This document shows positions 952-24,216 of a stretch of 39,524 bases of DNA, one piece after another (the first letter of the stretch is position 1; every line of letters starts with the position of its first letter). The translations under genes and the position numbers were made by a program. The DNA lies in contig WION01000492.1 in NCBI GenBank assembly GCA_015039365.1, positions 1-39,524 of the forward strand. Reading direction: 5' to 3'. The DNA comes from Amanita rubescens (lineage: Eukaryota; Basidiomycota; Agaricomycetes; Agaricales; Amanitaceae). A model generated the notes under the pieces. That model did no database searches. It was not told the DNA's origin and saw only the letters and a program-made list of their open reading frames with translations.

Positions 952-1392
952 TTACAGGCCACACCCAGAAGCAGGGACTTGGACGGCAGTTACAGGGACA
1001 CGTCCCAGTGCTACAGCCTGACCATTTGTAATGTTGTTCATGGCCTTCAACGCGATGTTGAACGAGTCGGCGCCAGCGTGATCAACGGCCGTTACGTTGA
1101 TGCTTCTGCTCACGCCTTGTGCGTTGGTATACGTGAGCTGCCAGCAAGTGCCACAGGCGGGCGAATTCCAGGCCGTGACTGCATAGGCACCACCGATATT
1201 CGGGAAGCTAGGAAGGGAGCCGAGAGTGGTATAACCACGCGACTCCAAGCCGTTGGGACCGTTCGAACATGCGACGGTGTTCAGAGAAGCCGTACCATCG
1301 TCATACCAAGTGTCGTAGGCGACGGTGATTTGACCCAACACGGGAACAGCGACGAACGCGAGAAGAGATGCGAAGTAGGCTGTGAGCTTCAT
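952..1392 (-). CDS. Cerato-platanin family secreted protein
   Basis: This is a single-exon gene of 146 codons. Residues 1-20 (MKLTAYFASLLAFVAVPVLG) form a clear signal peptide, so the mature protein is secreted at about 126 residues, the usual cerato-platanin size. The family hallmarks follow in order: a YDTWYDD-type start to the mature chain, VACSNG near residue 42, the central CGTCW motif, a VTAVDHAG segment, and the C-terminal SGCGL. These supply the four cysteines that form two disulfides in the family. Cerato-platanins are small double-psi beta-barrel proteins, related in fold to expansins, that bind chitin oligomers and the fungal wall and can elicit plant defences. The start at 1392 is chosen because it gives the signal peptide. 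No intron is needed and no defect is seen. Confidence 0.93.
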   Translation of the reverse strand: MKLTAYFASLLAFVAVPVLGQITVAYDTWYDDGTASLNTVACSNGPNGLESRGYTTLGSLPSFPNIGGAYAVTAWNSPACGTCWQLTYTNAQGVSRSINVTAVDHAGADSFNIALKAMNNITNGQAVALGRVPVTAVQVPASGCGL

Positions 1393-1439: not shown

Positions 1440-2960
1440 AAAGAGGATGCGGTTAGCTTAACATGGGGCTCACATACGCGGTGTCGTAAGATCGGACAGA
1501 CATACGGGCAGCTACAACCACAGCATCACTTGACAGAACTCGGTGCACGCTCGCTTACCCCTTTTGCGCTTTTTCGTCTTTTGCCGTCGAAACATGGCCA
1601 TTTACGCCGAAGCACTTGACTAGTCCAGTCATTGATTCAGGGATGATGGGCGCCAGCGTCGATCAAATGCGCATGTGAGGAAAGTCCTCATTTCACGGTG
1701 CTCTCTGACCGTCAGTACTATAGCCTTGATGCCTATCACGGTGTTGTACTACCGGAGTTGCCGGAAGCCATGTGCTTAATGCAACTTTGATTCTAACATG
1801 CACTCGGCAGCCGACTTTCGCTACGTTCAAGATTCGGGGACTTTTCGCCATCGAAACACGGTTTTGAATGTCGTCCCTGCAACGGAGCCTTTCCTTGAAG
1901 GCGCATCGGAAAGTGTGACACCTGTTGATCAGCTGATAGTAATACCTCATGGAGCTTCTCTGGGTCGTGATCCGGAGGTCAGCGAAACACGTTCAAGTTG
2001 GGCCAGTCGTGCAATTTAATGTGCTTCTCCGAGAGCACAACTAAGTTGAATGTTTTTCCAATTCGGACCAGGTACTTCCTTGTCGAGTGAATGCAGGTCA
2101 CTGTGTGATTGCATGACAGGTGATCAATTTGTAGGAGGTTGACTTGAATACGTACGATGGTGACAATGGAGAAAAGAAGGTGCACAAGGAAGCAAGAGGA
2201 TAATGAATCATGATGATCAATGATCATGGGTTCTCGAGGTATAGTGCTGCACTCACCAGACACTTGATTAGCCATGTTGTTTGGATGATAATGTCATTCA
2301 ACCTTTACCTACTAGTACTATTGGGAGTCAATTGTGAAATTTGAATCTACCAGAATAGCAGCTCAAAATGCCACTGACTCAAGGTGGATTGGTTCAGCAT
2401 TGCCAACTTCTGAGCTCAACCATATATATTAATATATATGTTGCCTGCACCCCCACTGTGCAGCAGAGGGGTGCATTAACACAGTAACTCAACAAATTCA
2501 GATACAAATTTTCAACACTATTGAACCTACTACTCCTCCCTGATATCCCAGATGATGTGCATGTAACAATGGTAAATTGATATGTAGTTGCAGTGGTACT
2601 TTTCAAATGAAACTCATCCAATAACCAGTGAATGTACATATACAGATGTAGTATATCAAATTCAATTCATGCCTGGAAGCATTCTGGATGAAAAGCACAC
2701 CTTCAGAAGCATGATCTCAAATCACCTTTTTAGCTACTTGAAATGTTTGCTAATACATGGGTTAAGCAGTGAGTTCATAAACAATCTATTTTTGTATTTC
2801 TGTCTCACAAATTACAATGTCACAACTTGAAAAATGATATCTGGTCATAGTTGTCAAACCAACAGCAAGCATGTATACACGATATATGTAGGAAAAATTT
2901 GGGCTAAAGGGCCTTTGAAGTACAGTTTTATCAAGGAAAGCATGTGAGGAAAAGATCACA
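1440..2960. other. Intergenic; composition turns AT-rich near 2.0 kb
   Basis: No open frame here carries a recognisable domain. From about 2.0 kb the sequence becomes visibly richer in A and T, as in the G-domain gene that follows. The stretch 2.4-2.96 kb is probably that gene's 3' untranslated and downstream region. A short palindromic cluster of TGATCA sits near 2215-2226. Confidence 0.45.
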
Positions 2961-2969
2961 AATATAGGC

Positions 2970-5900
2970 CTAGGAAGGAAAGGTGTTTTTCCATTTGCAG
3001 GTGACCATATCTATGCAGATTAAAAGCAAATTGGACAAAAATGTTAGCTTTCAGATTGTAAATGAAATGCACACCATTAGAGGAGATAGTCAAATCATAC
3101 AGAAAGGCAGTCAAAGCCTTTTTGTCAGAAGGCAAAGATTCAGAAGTAATGTGCATCTTGAGTCTGCCCACGAAGTCTTGTTCCTTGAACTGGTTAAAAG
3201 CTTGTAATGATATAAGGAGTGGCTTCCTTATAAAAAATGACAGCTTGACAAGGATAGTCATTGCTTGTATATTGTTAGTTTAAAACCATAAATCAAGCAT
3301 TGTGTATTACAGACTAAGATTTGGAAGGCTATGGGCTGATTATATTATGTCAGCTGTGTGCTGCAGGCATAAATATAACTCCTACAGTTTCTTCAAAATT
3401 TGATACATCCTCTCCAAACAAAGAGAGAAGTCCAGCCTAGTGACTGATGAGCAGAATATCAACTTAATTTGGTAATGAGCACACAAGCTAAGTGCTCATT
3501 AGCATGTATGTATATCAATCTTTTGTGTCTTTTACCACTGACCTAGAGAACCAGTATTGAAGTTAAGAATGTGCAGAATGTACTGGTTGGAAGGCCATGT
3601 ATAACATCTTACAATCTATGGATAATTTGAAGTGTGAGTGATGGAAAAGAATATAAAAGACAGTATATTTCCTCACTTGCTGTTTGTTGTAATCAGACTC
3701 CAGGACAGGAAACATTGCAGTATTGCTCACAGCCTGTTTGTATAAGGATAAGATCAGATCCTGATAAATCCAACAATTACTCACAAAGTTTGTTAGGGTA
3801 TGGGATATGTACGGTCAGACCAGGTTGCAGAACAATGAAAACAGTGATGCAACCAACAATCTGTTGGTGACTGGAATCAGTATACATCTCACTATGGCTG
3901 AAGCCTAGTGTGGTGCTACTGACATGCTGTTTATTATGAGGTGTGACATGATCAAGCTGAATGGAATGCAAACATGTTGTGTCACTCACATCCTGGTGGT
4001 CTTAAATGAGACTTGTTTGCATGAAAAAAGATTAATGTTTTACTCACAAGCTATTCATCATGGGATACACTGTGGTTAGAGTGCCTTGCAGAGCTATACA
4101 CTAACATCACTAACTTGCTATTGGTAATGGGATGAGTTTTGATCAGGCTGCCTTGAATACAGTTTTGTACACTATTACTCACTTCCTGTTGGTTATGGGA
4201 TGTGATGTCATTAGAGTTCCAAGATAAAATGACAATATTGCTCACAAGCTGTTGGTCATAGAGATATGTGATCAGACTGACCAGTGGAAGAAGAAACTGC
4301 AGGAGTACTCACTTGCTTTTTGTATTGGGGGATATGGATATGTGACTGATATCTTGGCAGAAATCACTGGAGTCCCACTTACAAACTGTTTGGTGTGGAA
4401 TGAGGTATCACACTTTCTGGAACAAAAAACCACATTATCACTCACTTGCTGTTAATTGATCAGCACATAATGAGATATGATTGCAACTGTTTGATGCATC
4501 ACCACTTACTAACTGTTAGCAATTTTATGAGATTGACTAGCAGCACAACAAAGACAATAGTATTGTCACTTACTGCCTATTGATTGTGAGAAGAATGAGT
4601 AGTGGAAGAACCAGGGATGTAGTATTACCCACTTCCTGTTAGTCATAAGATGAGATTTTATCATGGTGTTCTGCAGAAGATCACTGCAGCATCACTCACG
4701 GCCTTATATGGAGGGCAATATTTGATCAAATCATCTGACAGAAAGATGGCTCTAACTCACTTCCTATCATTTATGGAATGGTATGAGTTGAATGATTAGC
4801 AGGGAAACACTGCACTGTCACCTACTTTCTGTTGGTATTGGGGTGATATGTATCCATCTCAATAAATTGCCAAGCACAAATGCAACACAATATCACTCAC
4901 TGCTATCTGTTGTTCATGGAATGCAATTACATCCTTCCAGGCAGAAAAACAAAGACAGTAGTGCTACTTACTTCCTGTTGGTCATGGGTGTGATCATTTG
5001 ATGTAATGAGTCAGACAATGTACCACAAGACATTGTAGTGCCCTCACCAGCTATGTATGATCAATGCATAATGAGTGATTATACTGGCAGGCAAAAGTTC
5101 TTCAGTGTCACTCACATTCTTTTGGCCATTGAATGGGATGGGATGAGATTGCTTGGCAGAAAACACTGCAGTATCACTCACCTCCTATTGGTCATAGAAT
5201 GACAATGATTAGATCTGGTGTAAACAAGTCACAGAGCCACTCACTATCTGTTGGATGTGATCAGACTGTCTGCCAGAACATCACTTGAGTGTCACTCACT
5301 TCCTGTTTGTCATGGGAAGAGGTTCAGGCAAAGGCCATGGAAGAAAGTCACCATGGTACTACTCACTTCCTGTTGGTTGTGATATGGCATGCAATTAGAC
5401 TATCTGAAAAGTGGCACACACTTTCTGAAAACCAGCATAAGGTAGATTAATCTGATTGTCAGGAAGAATAGGATCTGAATGCTAGTAACACTCACTCTCT
5501 GTTGGCCCTTGGATAAGATGTAATCACATCATTGCATGATAACTCACTTGCTGTGGACTCTGGATTGTGTACATGTGGTGTAGAGAGGCTGTCAGGAAAA
5601 AAAGCTACCCCATCACTTACAAGCTGTTGGTTATGCAATAGACATCAGAAAACTGCCTGACAGACAAAATTTTGTGCCACTTGCTTCCTGAGATAAAGAA
5701 ACACATGACCAGGCTGCTTCAGTTTGGCCAAAAAATGGTGCACTTTTACTCACAACCTGTTAACAGATTTCATCAGACTCTCTGCTAGCACATACAGCAC
5801 CATTATTTACAATCTGTTGATTATTGCACAAAACATGATTAGGATGCCTGATAGGAATGACTGCATGTCACCTCCTGTTTGTCATGAGATGAGTCTTGAA

Positions 5901-8900
5901 TAATTGCTTGACAGAAGAACCTGAAGCATGACTTACAATCTGTGGTTGATGTCATGAGAAGTGATTGGACTACATGGCAGGAAAAGACTGGATTGCTACT
6001 GACTTGCTGTTGGTTATGAGATAGGATATAAATACTCAGATCTTAAAGCACTCATACCTTCTGTTCATTATGGAGTGTATTGTGATCAGAGATACTGCCT
6101 GATGAACATTGCAATGTTACTTACCTGCTGTTGGTCATGATGAGATGTACATGTTCAAACAAGTGGGATGGGATGAGTTTACTGCCACTCACAAGCTACT
6201 CAATGTCACAGTGAGGATGTGTTTCAAAATGACCATGCAGGAACATTGCAGTGTCACTCACAAACTGTTATTATCACATGAGATATGATGATTGTATGAG
6301 GTGGTAACAAATTTTACTAACATCCTGTTATGATAGAATGTTGTGATCAGATTCCTAGAAAAAAAGTGCAGCAATAATACCATAGTCTATTGATCATGGG
6401 AAGAGATATCGATCAAACTGCATGAATGAAAAATGTTGCAATGTTGCTCACCCACTGCATATGTTGAGAGTGATCAAATGAGACAGCTAATGGAAATCAC
6501 TGCAGTATCACTCAACTATCTGTTGGTATGGTGTAAGATGTGATCAAAGTGTCTGATGGAAGACACTGCAGTACTACTCACTTCCTATTTGTCATGGAAT
6601 AAAATACATATCATCAAGCTATATGTGAGAAGAAATGCAGTGCAACTTACTGACTATTAGTCAAGAGATTAGGTGTACCAGTTTACTTGCAGTGAAAAAT
6701 TCATGCCAGAATTACTCACTTCCTGTCAGTCATCAGGTAGCATGTGATCAGACTAGAGCATCTGGCAAAAAGTACTGCTCACTTGCTGTTGGTCAAGGGA
6801 TGAAATGCAATAAGACTACCTGGCAGGGAAAGGGGTAGTGTTGCTTACCTGCTGATGGTCATTGAATGAGATTTGATCCAGTTACTTGGCAGAACAACAT
6901 TGCAGTGACTGTACTCACTTGCTGTTGGTGATGGATAAGATGTCATCATTGCCTAGAAACAATTCCTGCAGTGTTACTCACAAGCTGCTCTTAGATCATG
7001 AGATTTGGTCAGATCAGCCAACAGGAATTACTTACATCCTATTGTGTAATAAGGAGTGATCAGACTATTAACTGCAAAGATTCCAAAGTCACCCACAACC
7101 TATTCCCATCATATGAGATGTGATCAAAAAATCCTACATCATCACAACTCACAACCTGTTGGTCACCAGAAATGTAATGAGATTGGCTCCCTGATACAAA
7201 AGTGTTTATTGGCACTTACACTCTGGAGGTCACATTATGAAAAGGATGGATGAGAGAAAAGCACTGCAGTAACTTACAGGCTGTTGGTCATGGTAAGACT
7301 ACATTTCTGAAGGCCACTGCAGTGTCACTCACCCACTGTTTGCCATGGATATGATGTGATTATCTTGTTTTCATAAAGTATGCTGGCCCTACTCACCCAC
7401 TATTGGTCATAGGATGTGATGCAAACAGTTGAGAAACAAGAAACAAAGCATGCACTCCTACTCACTTCCTGTTTGTCATAGAAGATTAATTTTATCAGAC
7501 TGCTTTGCAGAAAATTGCAGACCTCCTGTCATCATAACATTGGATGTAATCAGACCCCAAGTAATAAAAAAACAATGCAGGATCACTTACAAGCTTTGGA
7601 ATGACATGTGGTATCATCAGAGCATTTAAGACAAAAACTGCACTGGCACTTACAACCTATTTATTATGAATTGAGACAGGAATTAGAATGTCTGGTAAAG
7701 GACTCTAGTGTAACTGACAGACTGAATAACAGGTGATCTGAGGCCCCAAAGAACATAAGTGAAGTTCCACTCACTTGCTGTTGGTCATGAGAAGAAAAGT
7801 GGTTAAATTGGCTTGTATATGCCACTTGCCCACTATTGATCATGGGAGAAGTTTTAATCAGTCTCCCTGGCAAAAATACTTTGCTCACTCCCTGTTTTTA
7901 TAGGGTGAGGTGTTCAGGATATATAAAGAAAATCAGCACCACTCACAATCTGTTGGCCATATGTGGTCAAACAGCCAGGAAGAGGCAGTTTTACTCACTT
8001 GCTGTTGTTGGTTATGGATGTGATGTGATCAGGCCACTCATTTGAGGGATGTGTCACTCACCCCCTGTGATTCATTAATGAGATGTGATAAAATTGTCCA
8101 GTAGAAAATGCAACACTGTTACTCACCCCCTGTTGTTATGTGATAAGATGTAATCAACTGCCTGACAGAAAAACACACCACAGTCACTCACTTTCTATTT
8201 GTCATAAGACATGGTGCAAGAAAACTGTGAGGATACCTAGTGTCACTCACAAGCTATTCCCCATGGGATGAGGTGTAATCAGACCATCACAATAAAAATA
8301 TCACAGCATTGCTCACAATCTGTCAATAATGGGTGTGATGTATCAGACTGCCTGACAAAAAAGCAATGCAGCATCATTTATGGACCTTCTGTTGTGAAGA
8401 AGTATGGATGTGGTTAAATTGTTCAATAGAGAATAGTTAAATTACCCTCACTTGCTGTTGGTCATATTATAATACAAAAATTGATTGTGGTGCAGAAGGC
8501 CAAGGACTCCTGGCCACCCACCTTCTGTTGGAATGGGATGAGATTCAAATGCTATTTCTGGTAGTAATGTAGGTAGCTCACAAGCTAATGGCCACAGCAT
8601 GAACATCATCAGATTGTCCACCAGAGCAAAACTGTATTGTCTTGCTCACTGTCTAACAATCATGGGACAAGTTTCATTAGACTGCCTGGTGGAAAAATGA
8701 CAACTGTAGAGTCATTTACTTGCTGTTGGTTGTGGTGGGTGATATGATTAGATTTCTGGGCAGGAAAAAAGACTATTGTGTCACTTACTGACTAATCATA
8801 TCATGAAATGTGATTAGGCTGTCTGGAAAAACACAATGCAGGATCACATACATGCTGTAGTACTTAGTATGATCAAACTGTTAAGAAAAACATACTGCAG

Positions 8901-10503
8901 TATCACTCACTTCCTGTTCATGATAATGAGGTATAATCAAATTTCCCAAAGAAATGATGCTGAAGCATCACACACAAGCTGTTGGGAGTGAGATGTGATG
9001 TGATTAGAATTTCTAAAACACTGTAGTGTCAAGCCATGTGTCTTACATTTTTTTCATCCTGTTCAATGTGCCATGATTGAGCACATCAGTGCAAGGGGAT
9101 GTCAATACACTTACAACCTATTACATACTTCAATTGTTGCATGACTCATTAATATTGAAGGAACATACTGCTACAATACTCTATCCTTTATCTTAGATTT
9201 TTTAACATTCCCATTAGAGGGTGCCACACACTCACCCAATAGTGTGGAAAGTGGATCAGAACCAACATGAAAATTATCTTCCATCTGGAATCCCCTGCAG
9301 CCAAAATACATCTAAAAATTGTGAAATTCAGAGTGATGATCCTAATGTGATTTCTTACTTCAGTGCAGCTTTGATGCAAATATTGACATTGTTCATCTGT
9401 GTTGAGACAAACAACTGGAGAAGACTAGCATCATCAATTACATCAGCAGTCCTCTCAGTCAATTCTGGACAGTTATTCCCTGGAATATCCATATCTGTTG
9501 AGCAACATTAGGACATAATATATTTAGGTTTTTTGTTTTAATTTCTACCTTCCAATCGCACATAGGCTTTTGGGGGATATCTTGTACTCAGGACTTTAGG
9601 AAGATAAACTCCCAGAAAAGTCTTATCAGCATTTTCTCTAGCCTTCTCCCACTTATCTTCAGCTTCATTCAACTGAGTAGATTCTTGAATTATTTGACCA
9701 TCAAATTTGGTGAATATCACTACCAAAGGCACTGAAAATGTATCATTCAGTTGAGAGTTGCAAAAAAAGGCTGAGAGGCTCTTGCCAACTCAACCAAATA
9801 TTATGACAATGTGTAATTGGCTGCAGGACTAACCTTTCCCAATGCCTTTGGCAAAAAATTCAAGCTCTGCACATAGAAGAGGACGAGGACTGTCCATGGG
9901 TATGCAGTACCTATAAAAAGCTTAGCCTGTTTACTGTTGAAAAGAATAAACAACATAAATACCAAATTGCATGTAATTGATCCTTAACTCGAGTTGCACT
10001 TGACCTCTTATCAATAAATTTCCAGACATTTACTAATTCCTCGCTTGCACCAGCTTCAAAACCCTGAGAGTCATGGAAGATAAAGTTGCTTCCAGGGTAT
10101 GTAATTTGGTGTTCAATATCATGAATGCCTCGCTATAATCTATTGCATCTGATCCAATTGTTCATTTTCATAAGTCAACTCACCTCCATTGATGGTGTCA
10201 AATGTATTGTGGAAGGAACCAATTGTTGATCTAAAGCACAGTGAATACACATACAGTAGGTGAGGGTTTGGTTTAGCTCACCATTCTGATCATAAATGAC
10301 AGGCTCTGTCCCACTTTCTACACCACAGACCTTCTCAAGAATGGTTGTTTTGCCCGCATTGGCCCTTCCTATGATAAGAATCCGAAAATGGGGGCATTTG
10401 TATTGTTCCTTAAGCACTTTGATATATCCTACATCAGTCTCTGCAAGGCACAAGTCTGAATATTTGACATACCTGATACATGTGCACCAGCAGTCTCTGC
10501 CAT
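2970..10503 (-). CDS. Predicted GTPase (G-domain protein) with about 99 exons, 87 of them micro-exons
   Basis: I join exons 10473-10503, 10282-10440, 10184-10230, 9963-10132, 9834-9910, 9549-9731, 9359-9494 and 9236-9311, then 87 micro-exons (listed under the repeat entry), then 3386-3436, 3311-3335, 3075-3263 and 2970-3010. The product is about 486 residues. Seen: the P-loop GRANAGKT in exon 2; a DxxG motif (HDSQG) in exon 4; and the guanine-specifying TKFD in exon 6. The C-terminal half of the G domain continues through NCPELTERTADVIDDASLLQ (exon 7) to a hydrophobic segment ending FPHYW (exon 8). This fits the large, poorly characterised agaricomycete family of P-loop GTPases. All exon phases agree (0/1/2 matched at each junction), and phase 0 is reached exactly at 9236, where the single-codon exons begin. 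The micro-exon part would encode a Glu/Gln/Leu/Lys/Ile-rich, helix-prone stretch. The 3' exons (including a SESLPSDKKALTAFLYDLT segment) end at TAG 2970-2972. The 5' exons are firm, the 3' exons are likely, and micro-exon splicing is inference. Confidence 0.72.
3485..9117 (-). repeat. Tandem array of about 64-nt intron units separated by single-codon micro-exons
   Basis: Read on the minus strand, each unit is donor (mostly GTGAGT or GTAAGT), an ACACTGCAGTG-like palindrome, TGCCAGGCAG, a CTGATCACAT branch-point-like core, CATGACCAACAG acceptor, then a variable codon. The period is 52-76 nt. Low coordinate and encoded residue(s), in order: 9115 V; 9047 DEKN (12 nt); 8976 L; 8911 E; 8852 H; 8789 S; 8720 Q; 8650 T; 8582 L; 8522 K; 8452 Q; 8386 K; 8317 I; 8251 L; 8192 K; 8127 G; 8062 G; 7999 Q; 7947 I; 7889 G; 7830 W; 7775 Q; 7719 S; 7654 V; 7591 L; 7523 E; 7466 E; 7397 W; 7333 W; 7278 P; 7220 S; 7153 V; 7097 V; 7036 D; 6982 L; 6919 Q; 6849 Q; 6783 Q; 6720 E; 6651 S; 6582 E; 6517 I; 6452 W; 6381 TM (6 nt); 6322 D; 6262 F; 6193 L; 6125 Q; 6058 K; 6004 Q; 5937 I; 5872 E; 5811 I; 5754 V; 5685 E; 5621 L; 5548 Q; 5496 R; 5422 K; 5367 E; 5300 E; 5245 I; 5182 E; 5116 N; 5048 L; 4972 E; 4901 IA (6 nt); 4826 K; 4761 E; 4700 A; 4633 E; 4574 A; 4510 L; 4446 Q; 4383 F; 4313 Q; 4246 L; 4183 E; 4115 Q; 4048 L; 3990 D; 3924 H; 3858 I; 3731 A; 3677 Q; 3613 I; 3485 L. 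Two further units (3785, about 3543) are decayed. Units were found by eye. Confidence 0.88.
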
Positions 10504-16301: not shown

Positions 16302-17216
16302 TGTTTATGGCCAAGTTGGTCTTCGTGGAGCTATATAGAATTGAAGTTGTGTTTTCCCACACCAATAAAACGCGTACGTGTAAAACTCCCGTAATGAACA
16401 AGGAAAAACACTGAGACGCGCGATGACAGAACTAGAGCGTGTATTCGCTATCGAGAGTGAGATGCGATGGCAGGAACTCCGAACGAATGAAAGAAGCAAG
16501 TAAGTTCAGTAAGTACGTTCGCGCGGTTGAAATGCCTTTTATATCCTATTTGTATCTGTTTGTTGTATGCAACTGTCAAGAACGAATCCTCACTGTTTCT
16601 GATCGGCAGCTTTGTGCAATCTGAGGAGGGTGGAAGATAAGGCACTCCACTTATACACCGGCTCACAGCTCGTTTACGTACTCCTGACCCATGACCGTAA
16701 TGGTTGATTTAGATTCTACACCACTGCTTCACGAACGTGTTTAAATTTCTAGACTACGGCGTTATAACTCCCCCCCTCCCCCCACTTGCCCACTCCTCCC
16801 CGCGCAACCGTTTTCCTCCTGCTCTGTTGTAAGCCCACTCCTCTGTATACTGGCCGCGGTCCGGTCCGGTCCAGGTTCGGGACCCTTGAGGCCGGACCTG
16901 CACCGGACATGGAGGTTCGGTTCGGGGGGGGGCGAACCTGAACCTGCACACGGGGTTCAGGTCCGGTTCGGGTTCGGACCATGCCTGGACCCCAAATGAG
17001 TGGCGAGCTGGGTGCTTGTAGCTTTGAAAGGTTCATGGAAGGCCTCGCTTCACTAAAATTACTTGGTTATGTGGGCCGCTGCAGTGCACGGCAAGTCCGA
17101 GGCCTATTTAGGCTATTTTATCTAATTATATCAAATCTGACATGATGATTAACTATTAAGAGTAACTTACATTTAAAGTCAACATTCCATTCTTGAACAC
17201 TATATCCTCTATAAGA
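16302..17216. other. No recognisable gene; GC-rich repeat patch inside
   Basis: Short frames only (16439-16666 both strands, 16749-17036 -). A TATA-like CTATATAG at 16331-16338 lies upstream of the 15216-16301 gene, but only about 30 bp from its start codon. The GGTTCGG-rich patch is listed separately. AT-rich Helitron-like DNA starts near 17.1 kb. Confidence 0.45.
16855..16985. repeat. GGTTCGG/GGTCCGG-rich inverted patch
   Basis: The heptamers GGTTCGG, GGTCCGG and GGTTCAGG and their complements (CCGGACC, CGAACCTGAACC) recur many times in about 130 bp. They can fold back on themselves. Its GC content is far above both flanks. It may be the end or remnant of a small fold-back element. Confidence 0.5.
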
Positions 17217-17968
17217 TTAGTTTTTTGTATAGATGGCAATGGATGCATTCTTTCCTCTGCAGTGGTATAAATTTTGTATTGTGTTTATCATACCATCATA
17301 TATTGGCTCATCACCCGTAGTAATACCATCATGGAACCATGTCATTCCATTTTCATATACAATTCGAGAGGTGAAATGGTAATTTGAAAAGTAAATGATT
17401 CCTCTCAACATATATGTATGATGTTCCTGATCTATTGTCACATTGAATCTACTATTAATCTGGAATTCATGACCTGATACATCCAAAGCTACAATTGGAA
17501 GTGCATAAGCAAATCTGAATTTTCTATATATGTTTATTTGACATAAATTGCATATCCCTACTATGTCTTCTCTGAAATTTGTCATCCAAGATTCAGTAGA
17601 TAATTCCCCTGTGCACCAGCAACTATTAGACAACTATTGTTGCGAAGCTGAACATCTTCCACTAAGTGTTCATTGTAGCAATGTATAGATCTTTGAAGAG
17701 TATCTATTGGAGTCTCAAGTAGGATTTCCAAAAGCCTAGTGATACTAGTGTAGCGTCCCCATGCAAAGTTTATTGGAGATAACTGTTCTAATCTGAAACG
17801 TAAATTATCTCTGCTTGCATTCAATGATATCAGTCCAATATTGGATGCTGTGAAGTTGTTTAAAAGAGGACCCATTATTCTCTCATTCATGTTTCTAAAT
17901 GTATCATCCCATTTCATACAGTCACTCCTCCAAATAGCATGTAATATGCAAAGCAGAATCATATGCAC
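17217..17968 (-). pseudogene. Transposon-associated peptidase-like ORF, frameshifted
   Basis: Two overlapping frames, 17582-17968 and 17217-17633, continue one another. The first runs through WGRYTSITRLLEILLETP to CLIVAGAQ. The second continues with CNLCQ and a conserved C-terminal block containing ALDVSGHEF, LRGIIYFSNYHFTSRI, WFHDGITTG and SIAIYTKN. The shift lies near 17610 and is best read as an indel. The Y/HF...WFHDG pattern recalls the His-containing end of ubiquitin-specific-protease-like peptidases that recur in agaricomycete transposons. The upstream catalytic Cys is not placed. It may belong to the Helitron or be a separate nested ORF. Confidence 0.5.
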
Positions 17969-19257
17969 AGCTGTTTTCAGTCCAATAAAATCCAGAAGGT
18001 GTTAGTGATGAAACAGATATCACTTTACTGTCTCTATGTCTGGTTGATTTGTTTGTTTTTTTTTAATCTTTTTCAAAATTGTTACAGTCTTTTTTATTTT
18101 TTAGATTGTAGGAGGATGTTACACTCTTTCAGATTTCTTTTTTTATTTTAAAGGGATACTTCCTTTCGCAGGAATAAAAGAGTTTATGACATTGGTGTTG
18201 AACCAAGATTGGCACACTTTTATTTGATTTCTTCAGTATCTCCATTCTACATCACCTTCTATTGGGTCAAGCATAGGGTCAGATTTGCTCCATCTAATTG
18301 CTCGATGTACAGCTGAAGGCACATAAGACTCCCTTTATACTTTCTGTAACTTGTATTAAAGTATTCCTTCTATATCCACTACATTACTTGGCAGCTTGCT
18401 CTCATGTTCAGCTTTGTTATTTCATCTAGCAACTCCAAGTCTCTGAACTCTTGTCTCAAAGCTCTAGAAGCTCTGCCTGTTATCTTTTTTGTCAAAGCTT
18501 TGCAGGATGATTGTCCTTCAGCAGTTGCACTCCTTGAAAGTGCAGTATAATAAGCTGATGTGATCTACAGTTGACAGATCAACAACATTATATGGGCGAG
18601 TTTTCCCTTGTGATGCAAAGTCAGTCATGGCAAAGTTTGGAAGAACTTCTACTTGAGATCTGGACAAGCAGATTTTGCTATCATCAGGCAGTTTGCAATT
18701 ATTGCATTTGTAGTACGAGTCAGTGGAACTACATTTAGAGGTAAAGTATTAATGTGATGTCTCTTGGAGGGTTCAAGCTTTACAAATAGTGTCTCCAGAA
18801 TAACTGCCCTTAGTCCCTGTTGTTGATCCAACCAACAACAATAGCCTCTTGGCCATTTGTGATGCATAGTTCAGTTGCTGCATTGCATTAATGATGACAG
18901 GGAGCCTATACAGAGTGACAATTTACCTGGTACATGCTTATCAGCAGAGGAATGTGGAAGGTTCCATATAATCTGTTGCATTCATTAGAGATAGCAGCCA
19001 ATTTCTAGTTTTCTTTTCTTCTTGTAGTATTTTCATCAGTTGTGACCCTTACTGAGTCTTCTGAATAGAACATAGTTAGTTGTTACCAGTTTCTTGTGCA
19101 AACTTTATACACCTAACCTGTTGATTCATCTTTTGTATGTTCCTTGCAGTGATTATTGATATATTTCTGAACTTTGGATCACATTGAGGGTTTCCTGGAC
19201 AAGAGATGTAATCTTGATCTTAGAACTGTATGTCATCAGTAGTGCAATCTTTGTGTC
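17969..19257. other. AT-rich transposon interior without readable ORF
   Basis: No frame here exceeds about 70 codons or shows a domain. It lies between the helicase and the peptidase-like ORF and is probably eroded element sequence. Confidence 0.45.
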
Positions 19258-20558
19258 TCATATTTTCCAATGCTGAGCGAACTTATCATCATCTTCTGTA
19301 TTTTGTTGTTGTCTCATATTTTGCCTAAGAATCACAACAGTTGTACTTGGTGCCAAACAGCTCTTCCAATTGCTTCTTCTTGTGATCTCAGGGATGTTCC
19401 AAATTGTCCTATGTACGGCTATATAGGGACACATTTTCTCCACCTATTGGTGGAGGCAGTTGTGCAAAGTCACCAAAATTATGTTTATACCTCCAAAGGG
19501 TGTATCTAATCGATTATTACCCTTGCAAGCTGTGTGCTGATCCTGTATAAATCATGGCATGAAAGCATTGACACCTCATCCAAGCATAATCAACACCTTG
19601 TAATCGTGTTCGGACTTGAGATAACATCTTTTCAGATGCATTTTCACTTAGGTCATTTTCCTAAAACCGAGTGATATGTTGATCCAGACAACAGTGCAGC
19701 AGCTGAACCTGTTGGAGCAACAGCAATTAACTGATAGCTTTATTTTGCAAAAAAAGAGATGTAACTGCTTTATTACTTGAGATTTACCTGTTCCTCCCAT
19801 TCCTCCAATATACATCTTCAGTTGACCTGAGTTCACCATTACAACATGATGTGCAATTATTTTGAATGCACGTTCCTGCTCTTGATTTAATTAAACTCTG
19901 TACATAATGAGTTGATAGAATATTCATGAATGGTTTGTAATGTTTTTTTTCCAAATATGATTGTCAATGACTTGACAACATTTGGTTTACCATGACACTT
20001 TGAGAGACCTTCTTCTGGAGAATCAGATTGATGTTTGATTCTATCTGCAATACTTTTTGCTTTTCTTTACAATCCTTCCAATCAGATCCTTTCAAGTTTG
20101 CAGACTTGATTGGATTTATTGTTTGGAATCAATCTGAGAGAAATTTCATTTGTCCAGCCAGTTTGTCGCATCACAGCCCTAATATCTGCCATTTCTCTCT
20201 GTAGCTTTAATTCCTTGTTGCCTATTATGTTCTGATTGGTTTCAATGCCATCATGTAAGTAAATCCCATCAACATAACTTTCTGGAGATATTTCTTCATC
20301 ATTAGTCTCTATGTTTTCATTAAACATGAACAATGCTGCTCCCTTCCCTGCCTTCATTTGAGCACGATAGTCATCTCGAGCATCAAGGCACTCATATTTA
20401 ATATTAAAGTTTTCATCAATTGATACTGTCTTTGTGTAAAGTTGTGATTTATAAATGTTCATCCCAAGAAATCTCATGTTTTTTAAGGAATTCCTGTTCT
20501 CCATGGTTTGAATAAAGTCAGCATTGTCATACAATAGTATTCTCTGTTGCCTGGTCAC
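19258..20558 (-). pseudogene. PIF1-family helicase of the Helitron, fragmented
   Basis: The Walker A segment MYIGGMGGTGKSQVIKQL is at about 19.77-19.81 kb (minus). A downstream helicase motif, VVILRQNMRQ, is at about 19.32-19.36 kb. The upstream ORF 20082-20558 carries YRAQMKAGKGAALFMFNEN and MADIRAVMRQTGWT, as in the linker between Rep and helicase in fungal Helitrons. Frames between these islands are interrupted by stops and shifts, so no full helicase can be read. In an intact Helitron this enzyme unwinds the donor strand. Confidence 0.75.
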
Positions 20559-21125
20559 ACTAGGTAATGTGCCTCCTATAAAATTTACAACTTATTTCTT
20601 TGTCTGGGTAACATGAGTACATGTGTTTCACACAAGGGATGTGACTTCTTGAAATAGTACATATTATTCTGCAGTTTCTTAGACTTACCTTCATCTTCAC
20701 CTTCACTATTTTCATCCCTATCATATTCATCAATCAATTCACACTCAGAAGGACAATCTTCACATTCATCATCACTAAATGCACATTGACTTTACTTGTC
20801 TTCTTATTTAAGTCTCTGGATGAAATACGCTTTCGTCACATCTTCTAACCCAGTCATACAAACACATGTCTTCTAATTCATTGGCCTGTAAATGTAGTCA
20901 TACAGGTGAAAATCCAATTATTCTTTTTTTACTTTTAGAATTGCAACTTTACTATTTAGTAGATGCCACATCAGAGTCCCACACACTATGCACCTCATTA
21001 ACAAATGATTTCCAGTAGAACGAGACAAATTTATGTGAGGTGTAGTGATCTGGATTCCAAGGAGGTACATGCAACCATTGGTCCACCCATTTCTGATTTG
21101 GTTGACAGCAAGTTTACCATTTTTG

Positions 21126-22680
21126 TCAGCAATTGTCGAGCTTTATCCTTTTCAGAAATTGAACTCCAATGATTTCTTGATTTCTATCAAATATGCTTTT
21201 TATTGCTTCAAACACTACATGTGTTTTTAAGCTGCTTTTAGTAATATAGTCAGAAATGTAGACAATAACTGCCTTTAATGCAGTACCTGACCACATGCTT
21301 GTTACATCTGTGTTGCACCTGAATATATATGTCAAATAAGTAGTAATGAAGTTCATCCAAGGTTCACCTTTTTTCAGGTTCAAGCCCCAGACTCTGCATC
21401 AATTTGAGTCACTTCAAAAGTAGGTCTTGGAAAGCGTGCTTTGCATGTTCCATATTTGTTGTCTCTACACCCCACATATGCCACCCTTTTGTTAATTGAA
21501 CCATCCTTGTTTAACCTCTATCACAGTTATGAATGTTTGACTTGCTGACAATATCATCCACTACAAGTTCAAAATTTTTCCACCAAGATTCAACATCAGA
21601 ACATTTCTGGCAGTCATTACATTCAGTTGGGCACATTGGGGGAGGCATCAGGCAAAGTTTCAGTAGGGTCTTTATAGTCCTCTGATTTACTAATGTGGTC
21701 CATCTTTGTAAGATTTCATCTTTTGTCCTGTCAAAAATTCTCCAATCTGACAACTTTCAATCCATGCAATGATTTTTTCTTGGAAGTCAGAGTTTGGATC
21801 CAGAATGAGGTCACGCATTTCCTGTGGTGTCAAGTTTCCCTTGATCCATAGCATCATATGTAAATGAAGAGCCAATCTGCCTTGCTGTTCAACAGTACCA
21901 TAGAAAGCTTTAGTATGACCATACAAGCCCATATGTGTAGAACCAACCCCAAGAACATCACAAATAAATGTGTCTAAAAAGTGGAAAAATCTTGCACATG
22001 CCACTGGATTGCTGCAAATCCGCCTTAGACGTTCATCATAAGGTAGGCTAATTGGTTCAAATAATGCCTCATTTCCGCATAGTAAATGCAAATAGGATGT
22101 TTTACATCTGCTGGAGATAATGTGATATACCAAAATGGTGCTCCACAGTGTGCAACAAGAGACCAAATCTCATTTCTCATCCATTCTTGCTTGTATTGGA
22201 TCCTTTAACTTTACCAGAAACATGATCTAAATCTCTAATCAGTTGAAAACACTGCTTTTCTGCTTCAGTATTTGGCTCAACAAAGTCATCCTTTGACAGG
22301 CGATGAATGATTGAGTTCAGTGCATCAGCATCATACTCAGAAGCTCCCTGATATGTCATCAAAAATACGCTTTTCAGCTAGCAAAAACCATTAGTTGTAG
22401 CTGCTTTAACTTGTTCATGACTAAATGCTACAAAAGGGAAGTTAGGATCTGTTTGAAATCTTTTATCATGATACATAAGTAGTCGTCTTTTGTGTTCAGC
22501 ATCTGACAATCTTGGTACACTTCCTATACCACCTAATCCATAAGGAAGCCAGGAAACATTTGAGGATATAAATGGGGATTTTCCAGATGCTTTCAGCTTG
22601 GGCACCATGTCCAACTGCAAGAACTTGCCTTGATTGTTTAAGTGATGCAATGCCTTAGCCTTGACTTCATTTAATGACAT
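21126..22680 (-). pseudogene. Helitron Rep (HUH endonuclease) region, fragmented
   Basis: The ORFs 22378-22680, 22177-22362, 21690-22166, 21511-21753 and 21126-21383 are successive parts of one Rep. The N-terminal block has WLPYGLGGIGS, KRRLLMYHDKRFQTD and FPFVAFSHEQVKA. The catalytic block VEQQGRLALHLHMMLWI contains the HUH motif (H-L-H) near 21.86 kb. Later come CPTECNDCQKC and FRCNTDVTSMWSG, and a candidate catalytic tyrosine in YISDYITK. Rep nicks and joins DNA in rolling-circle transposition. The key His residues are intact, but the frame is broken between blocks, some breaks perhaps being introns. Confidence 0.8.
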
Positions 22681-22840
22681 TATTTAAGTTGCTCTCCTGT
22701 TAATCCATGGACTGTGAAAGCACATACCTTCCTCTGTCCATCTTCATCCTCCATATCATGCACACTTGTACCTCAGCAGTTTTATTGGTAACAATTGTTT
22801 GAATTCTACACTAACTGGGGCATATCTTCAGGATAGCTTT

Positions 22841-24216
22841 CTAGATTTGATTCAGATAACACACATCAGCATAATCTGCATGATTTAGAATGAGCCAGTT
22901 TAGAGCTCTCTTTACATGATTACGACGGACTAGAAATGGTGTTCTCTTGAAATCAGCTGCAGATGGTTTACAAGGTCCTGTAAACATGATTGCCAAAACC
23001 TCTTCTATGTCATCCTTTGGAGGTAGCATGTCTATACTTTTGGTAGAGGAGAAGGGAAGGCTATAGCATTTGCTTTCATTTTCCGCATTCCTGATGCAAT
23101 TTTTATGGAGCAACAAGAATGTCGCACCCTGGCAACTAGCATTTGCTCCACTAGTCTTAAGGAAGACAATTCATCTGGAATTTCACCAATCCAAAGCCCA
23201 TTGGCAAGCGCATGTTTAGGCACTTTGCCTTTGCGCAGAGCAGTTCTACATGTGTTACATACATGTTTGCAAGAATGATCTATGACCACAGGATATTCTT
23301 TTAATTTATCATGCTCCTTGTGTCTCTCCTGTCTAGTAACACCCGGAGTATTTAACACATGAAGAAGGTTCTTAACATTTTTTAAACTTGAGAGAAGTTT
23401 TACACTGGTCAACTGCCCACATACAGCACATCCTAATTCTTCAATGTTTATCTTAGACATTTTTTGGCATGCTCCAGTAATAACTGTATGTGCAATACTT
23501 TTAGTAATTGGGGGCGGTGGAAATATTGAATCCAATGTTTCTTCTACAATAGTTGAACTATCTGCTAATTTATAATATGTGTCTACTGATTTGTCCTTCA
23601 TATCATTTATATTATTCACTTTCATATTTTTAATAAATTTTCTGGTCTTAGATCTAGTATCTGTTATCTCTAGTTTGAACTTATCAACAATTTTTGGGGG
23701 TTTTTCCATTTTATCTGGTTTGTTCACAGCAAATATTGTAACAAATTTGTGACACTCAGAACAAGAATGTAATAAGAAAAGGTTGTGAAGCATAGCTGAA
23801 GTTGATCGTGAGCCTACATTCATCCCATGTGATTGAGCCAGTTGTCGACATGCTGATACAGGGATGATCTTTACAAGTGCACTCAGAGGTATGGATGTCT
23901 GCACATACATTGAATCAATATATTGATCCTTTGGCTCTTTGGTGTGTTCAATATATTGGAAAGTGCAACCAGATTTTGCTAAGTGACCTTGTATCGCTTT
24001 AGGCAGATAAGGCATCAACATATCATAGGAAATAGGACGCATTCTATAGCCACCAATATGTTCAGACCTTTTAGATGCTGAGAGTTTAAATTGACTAATG
24101 TCATGCCATACATTCAAACACATTTCAATGACCACCAATGTGATGAAAGCAGCAAATTGCATCTCATCTGAGACAATATGTAACCATACTTGTATGATAA
24201 CAAGCAAAAGAGTCAT
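22841..24216 (-). pseudogene. Helitron N-terminal domain (DUF6570-like), one-base frameshift
   Basis: A 394-codon frame (23032-24216) has MRPISYDMLMPYLPKAIQGH, a Cys-rich part (CAVCG, HVCNTCRTALRKGK) and the conserved ALANGLWIGEIPDELSSL followed by MKANAIAFPSPLPK. It then hits a stop. The continuing sequence, DMLPPKDDIEEVLAIMFTGP and then FKRTPFLVRRNHV, is in the next frame (22841 to about 23045). The expected PKVYDMLPP junction lacks one base near 23046. This is a clean mark of decay in an otherwise well-kept domain. The domain is found at the N-terminus of fungal Helitron proteins. Its own role is not established. Confidence 0.8.

What the first reader, a model, noticed from the sequence alone, without database searches (positions are those of the whole stretch)
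3485..9236. A gene in which about 85 consecutive codons are each their own exon
Seen: on the minus strand, acceptor AG + 3 nt + donor GT recurs 84 times at 52-76 nt spacing, plus three exons of 12, 6 and 6 nt, all multiples of three. The three bases vary over 28 different codons while the bases on both sides (CAACAG and GTGAGT) are kept. None of the 84 codons is a stop (about 2 % by chance at equal base use). The frame worked out independently from the start codon and eight ordinary exons enters the tract in phase 0 at 9236 and leaves it in phase 0 into exon 3436-3386. The two other frames of the joined codons contain stops (e.g. TAG across units 5300/5245, TGA across 7097/7036). The joined product is Glu/Gln/Leu/Lys/Ile-rich, e.g. 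DFLQKQIEIVELQRKEEI, as expected of an amphipathic helix. Single exons of 1-6 nt are known in plants and animals; an uninterrupted run of this length is unknown to me.
Basis: partly seen in the sequence, partly recalled or inferred. Interest (0 to 1): 0.96.

Follow-up and report, generated by a model that had tools for sequence, protein, structure and literature searches.

The report
Genes spliced together codon by codon
In the mushroom Amanita rubescens a large family of predicted GTPase genes carries long stretches in which nearly every codon stands alone between its own pair of splice-site motifs, and for two relatives of the gene in this window, proteins read from likely RNA-derived sequences carry the matching residues in that same order, so this gene, too, is likely spliced one codon at a time, a limit of gene structure that our paper searches did not find described.

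Summary
The window is Amanita rubescens. On the minus strand eight ordinary exons of a predicted P-loop GTPase end in phase 0 at 9236 (FPHYW); then follow about 83 exons of 3 nt plus a few of 6 or 12 nt, between introns of mostly 49-73 nt, down to conserved C-terminal exons. The genome holds 3,050 exact CAACAG-NNN-GTGAGT sites (reversed control 4), against 31 with 4-5 nt between (control 19); 2 of the 3,050 are TAA or TGA. In 733 decoded units there is no stop (41 expected). Decisive: two spliced, likely RNA-derived proteins carry the decoded peptides of two sister genes residue by residue (41 of 49 and 26 of 40 identical). The window's own transcript was not seen. In a modelled relative the tract is a helix, a variable loop and a helix between the G domain and a C-terminal helical domain. 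How adjacent introns are removed (a 5'-to-3' relay) is inferred. The introns form one sequence family and are almost free of CpG. Nothing like it was found in ten paper searches of a partial library. Verdict: real, very surprising; an extreme new variant of micro-exon genes.

The parts
10473..10503 (-). ordinary exon 1, start codon, MAETAGAHVS
   Evidence: GT donor; frame continues into the P-loop exon
10282..10440 (-). ordinary exon 2 with the P loop GRANAGKTT
   Evidence: AG/GT borders; 150 scored places in the genome match it, a capped list with duplicate contigs
10184..10230 (-). ordinary exon 3
   Evidence: AG/GT borders
9963..10132 (-). ordinary exon 4 with FHDSQGFE (G3-like)
   Evidence: AG/GT borders
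9834..9910 (-). ordinary exon 5
   Evidence: AG/GT borders
9549..9731 (-). ordinary exon 6 with TKFD (G4-like)
   Evidence: AG/GT borders
9359..9494 (-). ordinary exon 7
   Evidence: AG/GT borders
9236..9311 (-). ordinary exon 8, ends ...HFPHYW in phase 0
   Evidence: FPHxW is shared with relatives
3485..9235 (-). tract of single-codon exons: 81 found by the chain, plus ATA 6519-6517 and CTT 3487-3485 by hand; two 12-nt and one 6-nt exon; introns mostly 49-73 nt; two units with GC donors (7832, 5687)
   Evidence: all units with coordinates; length-free rerun and controls; paralogue L024 (79% identical)
9169..9180 (-). 12-nt exon AGTATTGTAGCA (SIVA), first of the tract
   Evidence: L009 has a 12-nt exon VGRE at this place and L031, read by eye, VDSN
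9047..9058 (-). 12-nt exon GATGAAAAAAAT (DEKN)
   Evidence: DEPN in L024
4901..4906 (-). 6-nt exon ATAGCA (IA)
   Evidence: the same motif recurs on C56, C276 and C427
3542..3543 (-). likely zero-nt exon (TCTCTAG|GTCAGT) between these two bases, like a recursive splice site
   Evidence: kept letter for letter in paralogue L024; like site TTCTAG|GTAAGT in L009
3485..3487 (-). last single-codon exon CTT (L), followed by exon 3436
   Evidence: seen in the sequence, not chosen by the chain; fits I-L-P-G-L-L-S-L-F of P0024
3386..3436 (-). ordinary exon after the tract, AGLLSLFGEDVSNFEET
   Evidence: resembles PGLLSLF / PELFSVFGE of P0024 / P0017
3075..3263 (-). C-terminal exon, MTILVKLSFFIRKPLL...TSESLPSDKKALTAFLYDL; lacks 3 nt near 3201 that copies C427 and C56 have
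   Evidence: aligns with P0121 and resembles P0017

Best explanation
The tract is a coding segment cut at nearly every codon: about 83 single codons and a few pairs or quartets each lie between a 3' and a 5' splice-site motif, about 60 nt apart, and are likely joined codon by codon into the linker of a predicted GTPase. Shown: the anatomy, the genome-wide 3-nt rule, the absence of stops, and the decoded peptides of two sister genes inside spliced proteins. Inferred: that this very copy is spliced so; that the short introns are recognised one by one (intron definition) and, because the two sites of a 3-nt exon can hardly be occupied at once, are removed as a 5'-to-3' relay in which each splice hands the next donor a longer upstream exon; that the unit of evolution is intron plus codon, so residues are gained or lost in the loop without changing the frame. 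The product would be a G domain, then helix - variable loop - helix from the single-codon exons, then a C-terminal helical domain.
For: (1) Whole genome: 3,050 exact sites with 3 nt (reversed control 4); 31 with 4-5 nt (control 19); 61 with 0-2 nt (control 13); 89 with 6-9 nt (control 40); 2 of the 3,050 are TAA or TGA (control 1). (2) 733 units in 37 tract pieces: no stop, 41.3 expected from position-wise composition; 176 of 608 intron lengths are multiples of three; stops by frame of the joined units 0/6/106. (3) P0024, 478 aa on a 1,486-base contig, so without introns: its residues between FPHYWV and LLSLF have no tblastn match in L009 but are there codon by codon: 41 of 49 identical, z 16.5 against shuffled order, one 4-nt unit left out as X. 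P0048, 418 aa on 1,669 bases, and L031: 26 of 40 identical, 38 of 40 similar, z 13.2. L031 was picked by its ordinary exon; only the end points of the chains came from ordinary exons, the chains used splice-site scores alone. (4) Paralogue L024: of 81 window units 51 codons identical, 1 synonymous and 27 replacing changes, no stop, 2 gapped; intron triplets identical 55%. (5) 31 of 38 tract chains lie between G-domain and C-terminal matches on the same strand. (6) A model of P0024 (mean pLDDT 82.7) puts residues 361-376, single-codon exons in L009, in a confident helix 361-382.
Against: No transcript of the window gene was found. That the jgi contigs are RNA is inferred from length; their DNA and species were not seen. 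Of 22 decoded pieces (15 or more units; two pairs overlap) compared with ten such proteins, 4 pieces from 3 loci beat all 100 shuffles, 18 did not, the window's two among them. P0016 and P0029 leave the expected reading soon after FPHxW, and P0025, P0026 and P0086 end without the C-terminal part: retained introns or other isoforms may exist. Each decoded tract has irregular units: 8 and 7 nt in the window, 4, 13 and 7 nt in L031, two of 4 nt in L009; for the comparison I read the 13-nt call in L031 and one 4-nt call in L009 as zero-nt sites. The length-free window chain has one stop. First codon positions differ between window and L024 as often as intron bases (0.785 and 0.800 identical), so this copy may be relaxed. 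Seven of 38 chains lack a G-domain or C-terminal partner in the fetched stretch. The relay order rests on no data.
Confidence: 0.92

Rival explanations
1. The tract is one long intron, or a non-coding repeat array, that is skipped or left in; the splice-like motifs are only the conserved core of a repeat.
For: The introns are related in sequence; 11 of 13 NCBI models that I read end before or shortly after FPHxW; model P0083 runs from FPHYW to the C-terminal part with few residues between.
Against: A repeat has no reason to vary exactly three bases, to avoid stops (0 of 733) or to keep the spacing at 3. Spliced proteins contain the decoded residues.
Confidence: 0.03
2. The coding tracts are real in the family, but this copy is a decaying or unexpressed pseudogene.
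For: Codons diverge from L024 mainly by replacement (27 against 1 synonymous); strong CpG loss, as in the transposon-like stretch of the window; a few weak splice sites and small indels.
Against: No stop in the chained codons of the window or in 79 aligned codons of L024; both ends keep phase 0; the window's AG loss at 3787 is absent from copies C427 and C56. Replacement excess is partly forced: third-position C is excluded by CpG loss.
Confidence: 0.2
3. The source species of the spliced proteins encode the linker in ordinary exons and A. rubescens alone cut it up; the decoded match then shows coding descent, not present-day splicing.
For: The DNA of those species was not seen.
Against: Without splicing the A. 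rubescens codons should have drifted into stops; none did in 733, and a sister gene keeps them. P0093, a jgi protein that closely follows L009's early exons, suggests expression of a near-identical gene, but it ends before the tract.
Confidence: 0.06
4. The tract grew only by tandem duplication of one unit (intron plus codon), so the peptide is repeat-born rather than an old exon cut up.
For: All introns compared are related and more alike within a locus (0.486) than between loci (0.413; shuffled 0.332).
Against: Similarity does not fall with distance, and neighbouring codons are not alike beyond chance (49 of 608, shuffled 43.6, s.d. 5.9). The outer parts of the tract (WFxxA..xER.Y and the helix before ILPxLLSLF) recur in several family members, so those at least were likely protein first.
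Confidence: 0.3

Closest known systems
Micro-exon genes (MEG) of Schistosoma
   Same: Runs of very short exons, mostly multiples of three (PMC10526429: abstract and passages read).
   Different: That paper gives exons mostly of 15 bp (abstract 3-81, text 6-81) between introns of 100 to almost 5,000 bp, in secreted proteins. Here nearly all exons are exactly 3 nt, introns about 60 nt, in a predicted GTPase of a fungus, in far larger numbers.
Single very small exons: 1-nt exon of Arabidopsis APC11 (PMC4674806, listing only) and of Fusarium CYP621A (PMC12940212, passages read)
   Same: Show that an exon of 1 nt can be used, also in fungi.
   Different: One isolated exon per gene, not an unbroken run of about 85.
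Recursive splicing
   Same: A 3' site directly followed by a new 5' site; AG|GT zero-nt sites occur inside these tracts.
   Different: Recursive sites leave nothing in the mRNA (recalled; PMC6224609 seen in listing only); here each step leaves a codon.
Introners / introner-like elements of fungi (PMC9860276 passages; PMC4457414 listing only)
   Same: Many related short introns in one genome.
   Different: Introners are reported across many genes; here the family was seen only within one gene family, about one intron per codon.
Immunity-related GTPases (IRG, Irga6 and relatives)

Membership tests
Micro-exon gene (MEG-type) | series of very short symmetric exons in the coding region | tested here: met
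   84 of 86 exons divisible by three with no length preference
Micro-exon gene (MEG-type) | long introns between them (100 to almost 5,000 bp, PMC10526429) | tested here: not met
   608 introns of 44-79 nt, mode 62 (only lengths 44-80 were counted); window 49-73 nt except four of 99-132
Micro-exon gene (MEG-type) | secreted product with signal peptide | not tested
   no signal-peptide predictor was run; the product starts with a G domain
Introner-derived introns | near-identical introns at new positions in unrelated genes | tested here: inconclusive
   introns related (0.413 between loci, 0.332 shuffled), but only one gene family was sampled
Introner-derived introns | target-site duplications or terminal inverted repeats | not tested
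   no search for them was made
Recursive splicing | AG|GT zero-nt site that rebuilds a donor | tested here: met
   sequence only: sites in L009, L031 and the window, the window's kept in L024; CAACAG|GTGAGT 19 times by my count, not checked to lie in tracts
Recursive splicing | observed stepwise removal | not testable with these tools
   needs nascent RNA or lariat sequencing
P-loop GTPase (Pfam MMR_HSR1) | Pfam gathering score | tested here: not met
   19.8 bits against cut-off 21.9 (run on the protein with the mis-framed last exon); the hit is the P loop. Some other members carry PF01926 in the database
P-loop GTPase (general) | G1, G3 and G4 motifs | tested here: met
   GRANAGKTT, DSQGF, TKFD, and G-domain folds among the best matches of the modelled relative; motif names recalled
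Immunity-related GTPase (IRG) | G plus helical domain fold of Irga6 type | tested here: inconclusive

The most novel reading that the evidence does not exclude
A gene architecture at the limit of what splicing allows: coding segments saturated with one intron per codon, of the order of 12,000 single-codon exons in one genome assembly (duplicate contigs included), spliced by a 5'-to-3' relay in which every step rebuilds the next donor, and used to evolve, and perhaps to vary by skipping, a hypervariable loop of a large IRG-like GTPase family one residue at a time without ever breaking the frame.
Probability: 0.45. Interest if true: 0.98.

Novelty: new variant of a known kind. Interest (0 to 1): 0.95.

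Why it matters
It bears on how small an exon can be, and how many in a row, before splicing fails: here likely dozens of 3-nt exons per gene in many genes. It gives an unusually clean natural test of intron definition and recursive splicing, of intron gain without frame change, and of gene annotation: of 13 public gene models of this family that I read, 11 end before or shortly after the start of the tract, one passes it by and one holds only the C-terminal part. It may also be a way to evolve protein loops residue by residue.

Tried and rejected
Rejected: long intron or non-coding repeat (stop and length statistics, spliced proteins). Rejected: chance, by reversed-pattern controls and by path searches on reversed and opposite strands that found no path (the script prints this as 'control failed').

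Own errors corrected: exon 8 was first read in the wrong frame (and the queries); one search has the right exon.

Led nowhere: an intronless copy of the window tract in the genome (none; only a 39-residue piece was asked for, and the tool warns that an empty answer shows little); relatives of the window's own tract in the protein database (one hit only, in the C-terminal exon); close loci for P0017 and P0026 (none at the cut-offs set); CTRAY branch sites (110 of 608 introns, 111 shuffled); a first structure model from 5 sequences (mean pLDDT 50.8). Tandem Repeats Finder does not list the tract. TAG was not counted genome-wide (one search covers TAA and TGA); it is 0 of 733. The 733 units come from chains of 21 sources (the window and 20 loci), which left out the copies L021 and L022, the short L001-L008, and L025. 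The periodicity script would have dropped runs with a stop. AlphaFold was run on P0024, not on the window protein.

Paper searches for precedent: (held open-licence library only, Amanita with microexon, gave 0 papers). Papers read in passages: PMC10526429, PMC12940212, PMC9860276; all others seen only in listings.
Full report
What was checked. I rebuilt it with splice-site weight matrices seeded from 3-nt sites and a chain forced from the last ordinary donor (9235) to the next ordinary exon (3436). It contains 81 exons of 3 nt, two of 12, one of 6 and two irregular ones, no stop, and introns of 49-73 nt except four of 99-132; two units have GC donors. With no preference for any length between 1 and 15 nt the chain still has 79 of 86 exons of 3 nt, and one stop in a 6-nt alternative; on the reversed sequence and on the other strand no chain exists. 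Frame: eight ordinary exons, 879 nt, end in phase 0 with FPHYW; the exon at 3436-3386 continues in phase 0.

It is not one gene. The genome (75.7 Mb, 786 contigs) holds 1,554 + 1,496 exact CAACAG-NNN-GTGAGT sites, against 2 + 2 for the reversed pattern. Replacing the 3 nt by 4-5 nt leaves 31 (control 19), by 0-2 nt 61 (control 13; 14 on one contig, C749, that seems to have lost bases), by 6-9 nt 89 (control 40). TAA or TGA fill the three positions in 2 of 3,050 (control 1). In the fetched loci 733 units were decoded; 186 of them carry the exact motif, which scales to about 12,000 units in the assembly, duplicate contigs included (an extrapolation). There are 40 codons in use, no stop, 41.3 expected.

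What organism and gene. A database search with the window's G domain found 1,355 proteins, 120 of them listed; named hits on contigs of the same lengths as this assembly's C1, C56 and C235 are Amanita rubescens. The P-loop exon has 150 scored matches in the genome, a capped list with copies on duplicate contigs. Of 38 tract chains in the loci examined, 31 lie downstream of G-domain matches and upstream of C-terminal matches on the same strand; one (L018) has the G domain only, two (L012 plus strand, L020) the C-terminal part only, being cut by the fetched stretch, and four (L014, L019, the second chain of L020, L029 plus strand) neither. Of 13 NCBI models of the family that I read, 11 end before or shortly after FPHxW; P0083 passes from FPHYW to the C-terminal part, and P0121 holds the C-terminal part.

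The decisive comparison. Among the hits are proteins of 311-478 aa on contigs of 1.0-1.9 kb. P0024 has 478 codons on 1,486 bases, so it lacks all introns that its genomic relatives have; I take it as RNA-derived. tblastn places it on locus L009 by ordinary exons up to FPHYWV and again from LLSLF; between these there is no match. The 3-nt exons of L009, chained on splice-site scores alone, read WFESADNAAAKERQYYDDGVH-x-AGYGYYGGEKISEKERDKRKDFVEREIL; P0024 has WFESADDAAGKEREYYDDGIHSGGYGYYGGKKISEKERDHRRDFVEREIL: 41 of 49 identical, z 16.5; x is a 4-nt unit, and a second 4-nt call before the last L was read as a zero-nt site. A second, independent case: P0048 and locus L031, chosen by its ordinary exon: 26 of 40 identical, 38 of 40 similar, no gap once a 13-nt call (AACAG|GTAAGT) is read as a zero-nt site, z 13.2. 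A third locus, L012, also beats all shuffles against P0024 (70, shuffle maximum 49). In all, 4 of 22 pieces from 3 loci do so; the other 18, the window's included, do not, perhaps because none of the ten proteins compared is close to them. P0017 and P0019 have nearly the same G domain but different tracts, so the loop is variable also at the level of spliced sequences. Against: P0016 and P0029 leave the expected reading soon after FPHxW, and P0025, P0026 and P0086 end without the C-terminal part.

Selection. Window against paralogue L024 (8 kb, 79% identical): of 81 units 51 have identical codons, 1 a synonymous and 27 a replacing change, none a stop, 2 gapped; splice dinucleotides are 97.5-99.4% identical, intron interior 80.0%, codon positions 78.5, 88.6 and 90.0%. 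So the reading frame is kept while residues move, often to similar ones. The third position is C in 0.1% of units. This is CpG loss: C would stand before the G of GT. In the ordinary exons of the same gene C ends 1 of 95 codons before G but 43 of 197 before other bases. CpG observed/expected is 0.03 in the tract introns, 0.16 in the G-domain region and about 1 in flanking genes, which suggests past cytosine methylation of these genes (inference).

Introns. They are one sequence family (62-nt consensus), more alike within a locus (0.486) than between (0.413; shuffled 0.332), with no fall-off with distance and no excess of equal neighbouring codons. Simple recent tandem duplication is therefore not supported; insertion of a common intron, or old growth with homogenisation, fits better. 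Likely zero-length exons (AG|GT) also occur, one at the same place in the window, L024 and, in similar form, L009.

How it likely works. Introns of about 60 nt can be recognised one by one. The acceptor and donor of a 3-nt exon overlap in the space their factors need, so neighbours can hardly be processed together; a relay from the longer exon 8 onward is the simplest order (inference, no data). Each step works like a recursive splice that leaves one codon.

Known or new. Ten paper searches found single exons of 1 nt or a few, and the schistosome micro-exon genes, but no run of single-codon exons; Amanita with microexon gave no paper. The library is partial, so this is not proof. The mechanism is ordinary splicing at an extreme, hence 'new variant of a known kind', with very high interest.

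Noticed in passing
window 2001-10000 and 17001-24000: CpG observed/expected falls to 0.00-0.31 per kb in the tract gene and in 17-24 kb, against about 1 in most other stretches; both look like past cytosine methylation.
   Followed up: partly
window 20082-24216 (-): ORFs in the CpG-poor stretch look by eye like a Helitron-type transposon (recalled resemblance, not searched).
   Followed up: no
window 952-1392 (-): A cerato-platanin-like secreted protein gene in a stretch of ordinary CpG (resemblance recalled, not searched).
   Followed up: no
window 3787, 3776, 3628, 3201, 3081: In the stretch compared, the window contig differs from the copies on C427 and C56 only by small indels, one of which removes a micro-exon acceptor; likely assembly errors.
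   Followed up: yes
G000 C749:2075-4150: A tract with many 1- and 2-nt (and some 4-nt) spacings in place of 3; seems a low-quality contig, or a decayed tract.
   Followed up: no
L018 and L019/L020 (C3:115.7-132 kb): A short tract start after a G domain in L018 and a 75-unit tract about 11 kb further with C-terminal matches behind it: perhaps one gene split by a large insertion.
   Followed up: partly
L031:1036: A micro-exon site likely reduced to zero length (AACAG|GTAAGT) where its relative P0048 continues without a missing residue.
   Followed up: partly
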